Assembly: GCF_000702725.1 (NCBI RefSeq)
Contig: NZ_JNJI01000005.1
Location: forward strand, 1-64,000
Reading direction: 5' to 3'
DNA length: 64,000 nucleotides
DNA from: Mesoplasma photuris ATCC 49581
GTDB taxonomy: Bacteria; Bacillota_I; Bacilli_A; Mycoplasmatales; Mycoplasmataceae
Positions within the stretch are counted from its first letter, which is position 1. Every line of letters begins with the position of its first letter. Made by a program: the position numbers and the translations under genes. Below are positions 53,974-63,676 of the stretch, piece after piece. A model generated the notes under the pieces. It worked only from the letters and a program-made list of their open reading frames with translations, was not told where the DNA came from and did no database searches.

Positions 53974-54006
53974 TTTAAAAATATTCATAAGTTGAATATT
54001 TTTAAA
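53974..54006 (+). promoter_or_regulatory. 14-base inverted repeat upstream of manA, probable operator
   Basis: Half-sites TTTAAAAATATTCA (53974-53987) and TGAATATTTTTAAA (53993-54006) are a perfect inverted repeat with a 5-base gap. The core AAAAATATTCA/TGAATATTTTT with the same 5-base gap recurs at 61043-61069. It overlaps a possible -35 TTGAAT (53992-53997) with -10 TAAACT (54015-54020), a repressor-like position. A terminator for the previous operon already lies at 53942, so this hairpin is not needed for termination. Confidence 0.72.
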
Positions 54007-54043: not shown

Positions 54044-54961
54044 ATGGAAATAATAAAATTAAAACCAGCTTATTCAGAAAAGCTGTGAGGTGGGTCAAAA
54101 TTAAAGGAATTAGGTTTTGATATTCCTAATGGTAAAAAAATCGGAGAAGCATGAACAATTTCAGCTCACGAGAATGGAATGAGTTATTTGAGTGAGGGAA
54201 AATTTGCTGGTTTATCATTAAAAGAAGTTTTTGATAATCACCGAGAAAGTTTTGGTAACTATACAGGTATGTATCCAATGTTAACTAAAATAATTACTGC
54301 TAATGACTATTTGTCAGTACAAGTTCATCCTGATGATGAATATGCCTTAAAAAAACATAATGAATTAGGTAAACCTGAATCATGATATATTTTAGATTGT
54401 CCTGAAAATGCACAATTAATTTATGGACACAATGCAAAGTCTAAAGATGAATTATCAACGATGATTGAAAATGGTCAATGAGATAAACTATTAAAAAATG
54501 TTGATATTAAAAAAGGTGACTTCTTATTTGTTGATGCTGGTAAAATTCATGCAATCACACCAGGGGTTACAGTAATTGAATTACAAAGATCTAGTGATGT
54601 AACTTATAGACTTTATGATTATGATCGATTAGAAGCTGATGGAAAACCAAGAAGATTGGATTTAGAAGATTCAATCAATTGTACAACTGTTCCAGATAGT
54701 GATGATGTGATTGTTAGAAATGCAAATAAAGAAGTTTTTAATTCTGATTTCTTTTCAATTTACATACTTGATGCAACAATTGAAAATACATTTAAAATTT
54801 CTGAATCAGCATCATGATTACAATTAAGCGTTGTTGATGGATCGGGAACTATTAATGGAATTGATTTTAAAACTGGAGAATCAGCAATAACAATGAATGG
54901 AATTGAAGATATTAAAGTAACTGGAAATTTAAAAGTTTACATTTCTTGAATTAGAAAATAA
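54044..54961 (+). CDS. manA: mannose-6-phosphate isomerase, class I
   Basis: Zinc enzyme interconverting mannose-6-phosphate and fructose-6-phosphate. 305 residues, the short Gram-positive type: PAYSEKLWGGSKLKEL at the start, metal ligands in VQVHPDD and GKIHAITPG, and ELQRSSDVTYRLYDYDR in the middle of the cupin. The upstream inverted repeat is shared with the PTS gene at 61100, suggesting that the two serve one sugar pathway. The gene is followed by a GH1 glycosidase gene. Confidence 0.93.
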
Positions 54962-59451: not shown

Positions 59452-60204
59452 ATGGCTGAATTTAAAGAAAACAATTATTGAGACCGAATGAGACATTTTT
59501 CAACAAGTAGAACCAACTTTTGAATCAGTTTATTATTTCAATTAATAGCAACTATTATTCCTTTTATATTATTGTGAATTTTTATTGGTGCTGATTATAA
59601 AATATATGATTTTTCCTTATATGGTAAGTTGCCAAATCCGTATGATGGTTATGTGGCATTAATTTTAATCGGATATGTATTGTGAAGTTTATTAATAACA
59701 ACAATTACCTTCTTTTTAAAATGACAAAAAGCAGATGGTTTTACTTTTACTGTAGCATTAGTCTTTGTTGGCTTTAGCGTTATTATGAATGGAAGTTGAA
59801 TTAATGATTTAGCGGGTTTAAATCAAGGTATGAAAATATTCATTCGATTCTTAATTGCAATCGCGTGTGGTTTTATTGGAATCTTTATCGGAGTTATTAT
59901 TACAACTTACGCTCGAAACTTTAATTATAAAATTGAAGAAGATGATCAAAAAATACTTATTGCATATCGTAATGGTGAAGAAATCCCATCAAGAAAACAA
60001 CTTCAGATTAAAAGAGCTGAAAAAGCACATGAAAAACGTTTAAAAGAACAAGAAGAACTTGAAGAATTTAAAAAAGAATTAGATTTAAAATTAATTGAAG
60101 CTTTCAATGAGAAAGAAAAAGAAAAACAAGATTTTCGTAAATCTAAATTAGATGCTAAAGAGCAAAAACAAAGAAATAGAGACAAGAAAAGAAAAGGTGA
60201 TTAA
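59452..60204 (+). CDS. membrane protein with charged coiled-coil tail
   Basis: 250 residues, not recognised. The first 165 hold four hydrophobic segments (FWISLLFQLIATIIPFILLW, YVALILIGYVLWSLLITT, FTFTVALVFVGFSVIM, IFIRFLIAIACGFIGIFIG). The last 85 are highly charged and form a likely coiled coil (LQIKRAEKAHEKRLKEQEEL ... EKEKEKQDFRKSKL), cytoplasmic if the N-terminus is inside. It has a strong AAGGAGG site and is followed after 1 base by the RpiR regulator gene, so the two are likely co-expressed. Confidence 0.75.
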
Positions 60205-60205
60205 T

Positions 60206-61009
60206 ATGGTACTTGAGAAAATTTTTGACTTAACAAAAGAAGACGGTGTAAATAAAGAAATTAGTGACACTATTTTAAAAGAAATTATGAAAAACAGAAA
60301 TTATTCAATTTCTGTTTCTGAATTAGCTGAACTTGCAAATCTTAGTCAACCAACAATTACAAGATTTGTCCAAAACAATTTTAATTTAAAAAGTTATAAA
60401 AACTTTACAAAGCAATTAAATGAAGAAGTTTTGACTTATTTTGAACATAAAAATGAAATTAACGATATTAAGAACAATTCAGACTTATTAATTAAAGATG
60501 TTATTAAAACACTTGATGAAATAGATTCAGAAGTTTTAGTTAAAGCAGCTAAAATGATTGCTGGAGCTGAAAAAATTAACGTCACAGGAATTGCGGGTAA
60601 TTCTGCAATGAAATTAGACATTGAGCACAAATTAGCCCAAGTTGGTAAAATTGTGATGTCAGGAAGAGATTGACACCAAGAAATGATGAACTTAAATAGC
60701 ATGAATGAAAAGGATCTATTAATTATCATTTCTTATTCAGGTGATAAATACGAAATGAACCGTATTGCTGAAAAAGCAAAAACAAGAGGAATTAAAATTA
60801 TTTCTTTTACAGGTAACTTCGATTCAAATTTAAGAGATAAATCAGATGTTGTCTTGTTAGCAAACTCATCAGATCCTAAATATCGAACATATACAACAAC
60901 TGCACGTGTATGTATGATGGCATTATGACAAATTCTTTTTAGAGAAATGATTAAGTACATTAAGATCGATATTGATGCTATTGAAGAATGAAAATGAACA
61001 ATGTTATAA
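60206..61009 (+). CDS. RpiR/MurR-family transcriptional regulator
   Basis: 267-residue regulator. N-terminal helix-turn-helix (about 30-75: YSISVSELAELANLSQPTIT and RFVQNNFNLKSYKNF), then a SIS sugar-phosphate isomerase-like sensing domain (about 120-245: KINVTGIAGNSAMKLDIEHK, ISYSGDKYEMNRIAEKAKTR, KIISFTGNFDSNL). Such proteins sense phosphosugars. It lies directly upstream of a PTS gene whose promoter carries a palindrome shared with manA, so it is the natural candidate to bind that palindrome. Confidence 0.9.
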
Positions 61010-61042: not shown

Positions 61043-61079
61043 AAAAATATTCACAAAATGAATATTTTTTTAATATAAT
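61043..61079 (+). promoter_or_regulatory. promoter and palindromic operator of the PTS IIABC gene
   Basis: AAAAATATTCA (61043-61053) and TGAATATTTTT (61059-61069) are an 11-base inverted repeat with a 5-base gap, the same as upstream of manA. It overlaps -35 TTCACA (61050-61055), which with an 18-base spacer leads to -10 TATAAT (61074-61079). The A-to-T run could also terminate the regulator transcript, so a double function is possible. Confidence 0.75.
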
Positions 61080-61099
61080 TAAATTAGGAGGATGAAAAA

Positions 61100-63637
61100 G
61101 TGAAAGATATTTTGAAAAAAGAATACGTCTATTTAGATGTAGATGTACAAAATCAAGATCAAGCTTTTGATTTTATTGCTAAAAAAGCAGTTGAATTAGG
61201 GCTAGTTACAAGTGCTTCTGCTTTGGTTAAGGGTTATAAAAATCGTGAAGCCGAAGGAACTACTGGATTCGAAGATGGATTTGCTATTCCACACGCAAGA
61301 ATCAAAGAAGTTAAAGAAGCTGCTGTATTTGTATTAAGATTCAAAAATGAAATTGACTGAAAATCAATGGATGAAAAACCAACTAAAGTTGCAATTGCAT
61401 TGTTAATTCCTGATGGACCGAACGGTGAACAACACTTAGCTATTTTAAGTGACATCGCGATGAAATTAATGGATGAAAACTTTAAAACAGAAATGAAAAA
61501 AGCTAAAACTACTGATGCAGTAATTAAAGCAATGACTTCAACTAAAAAAGAAGAAGTTAAAAATGTATCAGTAAATGATAAAGCTAAAAAAGTAGTTGCA
61601 ATTACTTCATGTATTACAGGAATTGCTCATACTTATATGGCTGAAGAAAAATTATTATTAGCTGGAAAAGAAATGGGAATCAATGTTAGAGTTGAAACTC
61701 AAGGATCAAAGGGTGTTGGTACAAAATTAACTAGTGATGAAATTAATGAAGCAGATGTTGTTATTATTGCAGCTGACTTAGCTGTTGATATGTCAAGATT
61801 TGCTGGTAAGAAAATTTATTCATTAAAAGTTGCAAAAGCTATGAAAGATCCAATTGGAACAATCAAATCAGCTTTTGAACAAGGTACAACTCTTGTTGTA
61901 AAAGGAGAAGGATTTAATTCTTCAAAAAATAATAAATCTGCAACTGAACGTCAAACAGTTATGCAACACGTTATGGCCGGTATTTCATACATGATTCCAG
62001 TTATTGTACTTGGAGGAATCTGTTTAGCATTCTCAATCGGGATTGCCAAAGCAATTTGAGGACCTAGTGCTGGAACTTCGGGACCAGCAATTCTTGACCC
62101 TGGAACTGGATTACCAACTGGAGAATTTCAATATCCATGAAACCCATTAGCAGTAATGGATAAAATTGGGGGGGCAGCTTTTGCTATGATGATCCCAATT
62201 TTAGCAGGATTCATCGCTAACTCAATTTCAGGTAGAGCAGCCATAGCACCAGCAATGGTAGCTGCTTTCATCGGAAATAACGCTGGAAACTTTATGCCAT
62301 TAGGAGACATGGGAGTTGTTGAAACTCCTGCTGGATTCTTGGGAGCAATCGCAGCCGGGCTTGCTGCTGGTTATATTGTTAAATGAATTAACACATGATC
62401 AGTGCCACGATCATTACAAGCTGCTATGCCAATCTTCTTTATTCCAATCGTTGTTGGATTAGGGTTAGGATTATTATTCATTTATGTAATTGGGGGACCA
62501 ATTGGATTCGTTATGGATCAAATATCAATAGGATTTAAAAGTATTTATGAAAACAATGCCGAAGTTGGAGTTGGTGTTGGATTAGCTGTAGGTATAGCAC
62601 TTGGTGCTATGGCTGGATTTGATATGGGTGGACCAATCAACAAAATCGCCTTTGTTACAGGTTCAGCATTAGTAACTGCACAAGTTTATGAACCAATGGG
62701 AGCAATTGGAGCTGCAATTCCAGTTGCACCATTATCAATGGGACTTTCAACAATTTTATTCCCAAAATTCTTCAACAAAGATGAAAAAGGAATGGGAATT
62801 GCTGCATTAATTATGGGAACAATTGGTATTTCTGAAGGTGCCATTCCATTTGCAATTAGAGATCCAAAACGTGCTGTATTATCTAACGTAGTTGGATCAG
62901 CTGTTGCTGGAGGAATTGCTGGAGCACTTGGAGTACAAAACTTCGCTGCTCACGGTGGACCAATCGTTGCTATTTTAGGAGCTGTTCCTTATGGAACTCA
63001 AACTTTATACTTCTTCTTAGCTGTGGCTGTTGGAGTTGCTGTGACAACTTCAATGTATGGTCTATGAATGATTAAAGATGCTGGAGTTGTTGGATCAGTT
63101 AAAGCTACTCATATTGCTTTATTAACAAAATTAGCAAATGAAAAACGCGATGCAATTGGTAATGTTAAAGAAGAAATGTTAGCAATTAAAAATGAAAATA
63201 GAATTGCAATTAAAGAAGCAAAATTAGCAGAAAAAGATGTTGAAAAAACAAAAGCAGCTGCTAAAGCTAAAATGGATGCTAAAAAAGCAGAAATTATGAA
63301 AATTAAAGAAATTTATAAAGCAAATGTTGCGAAAGCAAAATCTGCTTATAAAGTTGAGGTTATTAAAGAAAAAGAATTTGTTAACTCAAGAAAAGTTGAA
63401 ATTAAAACATTTAATACAACAATTAAAACAAACAGAAAAGAAGAACTAGAAATTTTATCTAGTGCTACATCTAAAGCAAAAGAAATTTCAAATAAAGCTG
63501 ATAAAAAATCTTCATTAGAAAGTATTCGTGAAGAAAAAATATCAACAAAAGAAAAATTCCAAAAACAATTAGATAATAAACAAATTACTTTAAGAAAATC
63601 ATTTGTCGATAGTTATTCAAAATTAGCTAACGCTTAA
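61100..63637 (+). CDS. PTS fructose-family IIABC transporter with coiled-coil tail
   Basis: 845-residue sugar permease. IIA (about 1-150) with phospho-histidine in EDGFAIPHARI (H65); IIB (about 165-270) with phospho-cysteine in AITSCITGIAHTYMAEE; IIC (about 285-655) with MDKIGGAAFAMMIPILAGF, DMGGPINKIA and ISEGAIPFAIRDP. After the last membrane segment comes a tail of about 180 residues (665-845), rich in Lys, Glu and Ala, forming a likely coiled coil, absent in the fruA protein. Start is GTG at 61100 with AGGAGG at 61086-61091; no in-frame ATG fits. The sugar could be mannose-related, given the operator shared with manA. Confidence 0.93.
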
Positions 63638-63651
63638 TAATTAAAAATTTC

Positions 63652-63676
63652 AAACAGACTTTTAAAGTCTGTTTTT
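63652..63676 (+). terminator. terminator after the PTS IIABC gene
   Basis: AAACAGACTTT and AAAGTCTGTTT arms, then TTATTTT. Confidence 0.9.

What the first reader, a model, noticed from the sequence alone, without database searches (positions are those of the whole stretch)
61100..63637. PTS permease with a 180-residue coiled-coil tail
The last 180 residues of this IIABC protein are a Lys/Glu/Ala-rich, likely coiled coil with repeated KxxAxxK patterns, absent in fruA and in ordinary fructose-family permeases. It should lie in the cytoplasm and could scaffold enzymes, bind a regulator or tether the transporter to a cytoskeleton.
Basis: partly seen in the sequence, partly recalled or inferred. 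Interest (0 to 1): 0.6.

Follow-up and report, generated by a model that had tools for sequence, protein, structure and literature searches.

The report
Mannose permease with long helical tail
A wall-less bacterium's sugar-import protein, most likely for mannose, carries a real, inherited 180-residue helical tail that its relatives keep on this one transporter and on almost nothing else; the tail probably holds copies of the transporter together, but its job is untested.

Summary
ORF 61100-63637 (845 aa, TGA=Trp) is an intact PTS EIIA-EIIB-EIIC permease of the fructose superfamily with an in-frame, Lys-rich, proline-free tail from residue 662. The tail is no artefact: 27 proteins aligned here (window included), in nine genera of the window's family, carry it between conserved ends (GSxKEAHV, LRxKFVxxY). 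It is under purifying selection but evolves faster than the permease. A tail profile finds one strong hit per tail-bearing genome, on this type of permease (one genome has two), and nothing convincing in other families. The tree fits one gain, one loss and one spread to a tandem paralogue. It is a long amphipathic helix that continues the last membrane helix, with a hinge at about 800. Its hydrophobic period is 3.58, not the 3.5 of a classical coiled coil, and KxxAxxK is not enriched. New: an exact 27-bp palindrome occurs twice in the genome assembly, before manA and before this gene, so the sugar is probably mannose. Best mechanism: permease self-association through the tail (inferred).

The parts
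61100..63637 (+). PTS EIIABC permease, fructose superfamily, probably mannose-specific, with C-terminal helical tail (845 aa, TGA=Trp, GTG start, AGGAGG at 61086-61091)
61109..61534 (+). EIIA domain (residues 4-145); His65 invariant in 25 aligned proteins
   Evidence: Pfam PF00359 E=6.6e-35
61598..61852 (+). EIIB domain (residues 167-251); Cys171 invariant in 25 aligned proteins; best PDB sequence match 2r48 (named mannose-specific IIBCA)
   Evidence: Pfam PF02302
61928..63067 (+). EIIC membrane domain (residues 277-656)
   Evidence: TIGR01427 226 bits; Foldseek matches to PTS IIC structures
63083..63634 (+). Helical tail, residues 662-845; conserved ends and a conserved KAKxAYK..E.xFIK stretch (745-762)
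63083..63496 (+). Long amphipathic helix of the tail, residues 662-799; hydrophobic period 3.58 with a basic stripe on one flank; possible break at 709-716
63497..63511 (+). Hinge between tail helices (residues 800-804), at the alignment's NKxxKK region
   Evidence: helix break in both AlphaFold2 models
63512..63631 (+). Last tail helix, residues 805-844, ending in LRxKFVxxY
61050..61079 (+). Promoter-like site TTCACA-18-TATAAT (11 of 12)
   Evidence: promoter-like sites as a class are not above shuffles there
61043..61069 (.). Palindrome AAAAATATTC-N7-GAATATTTTT over the -35, putative operator
53977..54003 (.). Same palindrome, 40 bp before manA; these two are the only exact copies in the genome assembly
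54044..54961 (+). manA, mannose-6-phosphate isomerase
   Evidence: PF20511 E=3.5e-18
60206..61009 (+). RpiR-family regulator (HTH_6 + SIS); start at 60206 (MVLEKIF) preferred over the ORF list's 60152, by comparison with relatives
63652..63674 (+). Intrinsic terminator-like hairpin (10 pairs, then T-rich) after the stop codon

Best explanation
It is a working EIIABC sugar permease of the fructose superfamily, most likely the mannose permease of this organism, controlled with manA through a shared palindrome and probably by the adjacent RpiR protein. Its C-terminus has gained a lineage-specific helical domain. The last membrane helix runs straight into a long amphipathic cytoplasmic helix that turns back at a hinge near residue 800. 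The most likely role, which is inferred, is self-association: the tail packs on itself and on tails of neighbouring permeases, through its hydrophobic stripe and one-sided basic stripe, and so stabilises or clusters the transporter. Shown here: the reading frame, tail homology, distribution, selection, helicity and periodicity by prediction, and the operator pair. Inferred: cytoplasmic side, self-association, mannose as substrate, RpiR as the operator's ligand.
For: Invariant catalytic residues. Tail present in 27 aligned proteins including the window's and found by profile almost only on this permease. Tail dN/dS 0.23-0.48 in eight of nine pairs, core 0.04-0.22 over all nine. Alignment z-scores 4.5-28.6 against shuffled tails. 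Helix predicted alone (mean pLDDT 86.5) and continuous with the last membrane helix, 633-708. Phase-locked hydrophobic, basic and acidic faces, 0 of 1000 column shuffles as strong. A related PTS glucose permease IIC is a homodimer (PMC11393339). Mannose: manA adjoins 10 tailed and 3 tail-less orthologues; exact 27-bp palindrome only before manA and this gene in the own assembly, and before the PTS-manA pair of G002.
Against: No oligomer was modelled. pTM is 0.30 for the tail and 0.46 for the full protein, and tail confidence drops to about 40-78 per ten-residue block in the full model. The heptad period of classical dimeric coiled coils is absent over the whole helix. In the glucose permease the C-terminal half is the mobile, peripheral transport domain, so tying two tails of one dimer together could hinder transport; contacts between dimers, or packing within one chain, would avoid that. 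The pair of the window's protein with L004 gave tail dN/dS 0.84 with high dS. Substrate is by context only.
Confidence: 0.4

Rival explanations
1. The tail is a docking platform for another cytoplasmic protein (HPr, enzyme I, ManA or a glycolytic enzyme), scaffolding uptake and metabolism.
For: The most conserved tail residues form short motifs (GSxKEAHV, KAKxAYK..E.xFIK, LRxKFVxxY) rather than an even repeat, and the basic stripe is kept in most relatives.
Against: No neighbour is specific to tailed genes: manA and RpiR adjoin tailed and tail-less orthologues. The tail evolves faster than the core.
Confidence: 0.22
2. The long helix lies on the inner membrane face as an amphipathic lipid-binding helix.
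For: Period 3.58 suits a straight surface helix, and the tail is basic, +17.
Against: The hydrophobic face is narrow and lysines sit on one flank only, unlike helices with lysines on both edges of the hydrophobic face; no Trp in the tail.
Confidence: 0.17
3. The tail is a mildly constrained spacer or stabiliser without a specific partner.
For: Fast evolution, length variation of 159-185 residues, lost in G005 (L013).
Against: Conserved ends, kept in nine genera, dN/dS below 1 in all nine pairs.
Confidence: 0.16
4. The tail anchors the permease to the MreB cytoskeleton, or binds RpiR or the membrane protein of 59452-60204.
For: RpiR lies next to the gene in about ten tailed relatives.
Against: Tail and MreB do not co-occur. 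RpiR also adjoins a tail-less orthologue, and the 59452 protein adjoins none of the relatives searched. Fibril protein was not tested.
Confidence: 0.05

Closest known systems
Mannose permease ManP of Bacillus subtilis (fructose-superfamily PTS) with manA
   Same: EIIB domain is the best PDB sequence match (2r48; 50% identity); a paper read here states that manP and manA form an operon there (PMC9392796); here manA shares a palindrome or adjoins the gene.
   Different: Domain order is B-C-A in the name of 2r48 and A-B-C here; no helical tail known to me; the regulator here would be RpiR-type.
VC1826 (ManP) of Vibrio cholerae
   Same: Reported as a mannose PTS transporter in an operon with a mannose-6-phosphate isomerase (PMC9392796).
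   Different: Regulated by an AraC-type protein; sequence not compared here.
MngA, 2-O-mannosyl-glycerate IIABC (NCBIfam PRK09765)
   Same: Best NCBIfam match, 305 bits.
   Different: Far below that model's cut-off of 763 bits, so not a member.
Other PTS permeases of mollicutes with C-terminal helical extensions (L126-L131, L139)
   Same: Lys/Glu-rich extensions after a PTS permease core.
   Different: The tail profile gave no match in G066, G069, G079 and G025, so these look independent; not tested in depth.

Membership tests
PTS fructose-superfamily EIIABC permease | EIIA, EIIB and EIIC domains above curated cut-offs | tested here: met
   PF00359, PF02302; TIGR00848, TIGR00829, TIGR01427 above cut-off
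PTS fructose-superfamily EIIABC permease | Phosphorylated His in EIIA and Cys in EIIB | tested here: met
   H65 and C171 invariant in 25 aligned proteins; that these are the phosphorylated residues is family knowledge
Mannose permease | Genetic link to manA | tested here: met
   Exact shared palindrome; manA adjacent in 10 tailed orthologues
Mannose permease | Transport and phosphorylation of mannose | not testable with these tools
   Needs growth or uptake assays
MngA equivalog (PRK09765) | Score above the curated cut-off | tested here: not met
   305 against 763 bits
Classical heptad coiled coil | Hydrophobic period 3.5 over the helix | tested here: not met
   Best 3.58; power at 3.5 is 0.04 against 1.33 for the family mean; short stretches fit 3.5 less badly, and a dedicated coiled-coil predictor was not available
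Shared tail domain of this permease clade | Tails homologous across genera | tested here: met
   Profile E-values 4e-19 to 1e-53 (most of these tails helped build the profile); z-scores 4.5-28.6

The most novel reading that the evidence does not exclude
Helical tails have been added repeatedly and independently to PTS permeases of wall-less bacteria and organise these permeases into clusters or scaffolds with metabolic enzymes, a cytoplasmic organisation of sugar uptake not described in the papers found here.
Probability: 0.15. Interest if true: 0.6.

Novelty: new variant of a known kind. Interest (0 to 1): 0.36.

Why it matters
It gives a testable, lineage-wide case of a sugar permease that gained a cytoplasmic domain, in small bacteria where genetics on near-minimal genomes is practical. 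It also assigns a probable substrate and regulator site to a permease that family searches label only 'fructose'.

Tried and rejected
Separate gene or missed stop: no stop in frame, and relatives share the fusion. Known domain: Pfam and PHROGs gave only weak scattered matches in one or two members; the tail profile against PDB gave keratin at 0.013. Fold search of the full model matched EIIA, EIIB and IIC structures; the tail model was not searched because its pTM was 0.30. Tree: L082 was kept although its translation has 34 stops, and L002, L003 and L123_3 have long branches, so the rooting is unreliable. Literature searches found no description of the tail; that library lacks most subscription journals.

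Full report
What is there. The ORF at 61100-63637 is a continuous 845-residue protein under table 4 with a good ribosome-binding site, a promoter-like site just upstream and a terminator-like hairpin just downstream. It has EIIA, EIIB and EIIC domains of the fructose superfamily. From residue 662 it continues for 184 residues as a Lys/Glu/Ala-rich stretch without proline. The window's own fruA and the third permease in the genome end a few dozen residues after the membrane domain.

Is the tail real. Among 119 related genomes, 96 have a match to the protein. In the first set of loci 27 proteins, window included, carry the tail; later fetches added L132 and L133 and three tailed paralogues. Its start (GSxKEAHV) and end (LRxKFVxxY) are conserved and the middle varies in length. 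Tails align to the window's with z-scores of 4.5 to 28.6 against shuffled tails of equal composition; without the conserved ends the range is 0.4 to 17.5. Tail dN/dS is 0.23-0.48 in eight of nine pairs and 0.84 in the pair of the window's protein with L004; for the core it is 0.04-0.22 over the nine pairs (simple counting, some pairs have high dS). So the tail is constrained, but evolves faster than the core.

Where it occurs. A profile of 26 tails was run over 62 relatives at E up to 1e-5. It hit 22 genomes in nine genera, all of the window's family, once each except G009, which has a second hit on a tandem paralogue; the hits lie on this type of permease. Over 296 genomes of the class it hit 15, of which one lies outside the family, weak and partial (3.6e-6). 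Tail-less relatives are L013 from G005, the g8 genomes and the order-level homologues fetched. On a tree of the core the tail label needs three changes at the fewest, which fits one gain, one loss and one spread to the G009 paralogue; the root and some branches are unsure.

Structure. AlphaFold2 on the tail alone gives helices 662-800 and 806-844 (mean pLDDT 86.5, pTM 0.30). On the whole protein, with tail-less homologues as alignment, the last membrane helix runs on unbroken from 633 to 708, followed by helices 717-799 and 805-844, with lower confidence in the tail. Over residues 663-800 the family-mean hydrophobic period is 3.58, with a basic stripe about 98 degrees to one side and acidic residues toward the opposite face. 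None of 1000 column shuffles was as strong, though the members are related. The phase of the basic stripe lies between 229 and 324 degrees in 24 of the 27 tails; individual best periods range from 3.40 to 4.08. This is a long amphipathic helix with a near-straight stripe rather than a classical heptad coiled coil. KxxAxxK is not enriched.

Substrate and control. Mannose-6-phosphate isomerase adjoins the gene in 10 tailed orthologues and in 3 tail-less g8 loci (L031, L032, L042), and an RpiR-type gene in about 10 tailed ones and one tail-less one. In the window manA lies about 6 kb upstream (54044-54961), but the palindrome AAAAATATTC-N7-GAATATTTTT stands before manA (53977-54003) and before this gene (61043-61069), and nowhere else exactly in the genome assembly (10 contigs, 97% complete). 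In G002 its one exact copy stands before the permease, with manA directly downstream. The shorter form TATTC-N7-GAATA lies upstream in 6 of 9 RpiR-adjacent orthologues tested and in 1 of 20 others; the motif was chosen after looking at these sequences, so this count is descriptive. At up to two mismatches the seven-base-arm form is no more frequent in the window than in shuffles; only the exact copies are notable.

What it does. The permease itself should work as usual: His65 and Cys171 are invariant. The C-terminus should be cytoplasmic, from family knowledge that related permeases carry EIIB or EIIA there. A related glucose IIC is a homodimer whose C-terminal half is the moving transport domain (PMC11393339); if that holds here, the tail moves with it. 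Self-association of tails is the preferred role, at about 0.4, because the tail is nearly exclusive to this protein and has a regular interface-like stripe. Docking of another protein, lipid binding and a loose spacer remain open. The MreB, RpiR and 59452-protein partners are disfavoured.

Verdict. A confirmed, inherited, lineage-specific domain on an otherwise ordinary permease: a new variant of a known kind, of moderate interest.

Noticed in passing
window 53977-54003 and 61043-61069: Identical-arm palindrome before manA and the tailed permease, the only two exact copies in the genome assembly; suggests a two-gene mannose regulon under the RpiR protein.
   Followed up: yes
L126, L127, L128, L139 (fruA-like), L130, L131, L129: Other PTS permeases of mollicutes carry Lys/Glu-rich, probably helical C-terminal extensions of roughly 70 to 400 residues that look independent of this one.
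   Followed up: partly
L123 (G009:C67): Tandem paralogue, about 39% identical in the core, also carries a homologous tail (E=4.3e-19), so the tail has spread to a second permease.
   Followed up: partly
G000-G004, G007 and related genomes: MreB-family matches much weaker (about 1e-39 to 1e-61) than the 1e-120s of genera g6-g12, in genera without a strong MreB match.
   Followed up: no
window 59452-60204: Protein matches NCBIfam DxFTY_mem_plasm (1e-46) and ends in a Lys/Glu-rich stretch; not found beside the permease in the relatives searched.
   Followed up: partly
L013 (G005): Orthologue that lacks the tail in a genus where others have it, with RpiR still adjacent; a natural tail-loss case.
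   Followed up: partly
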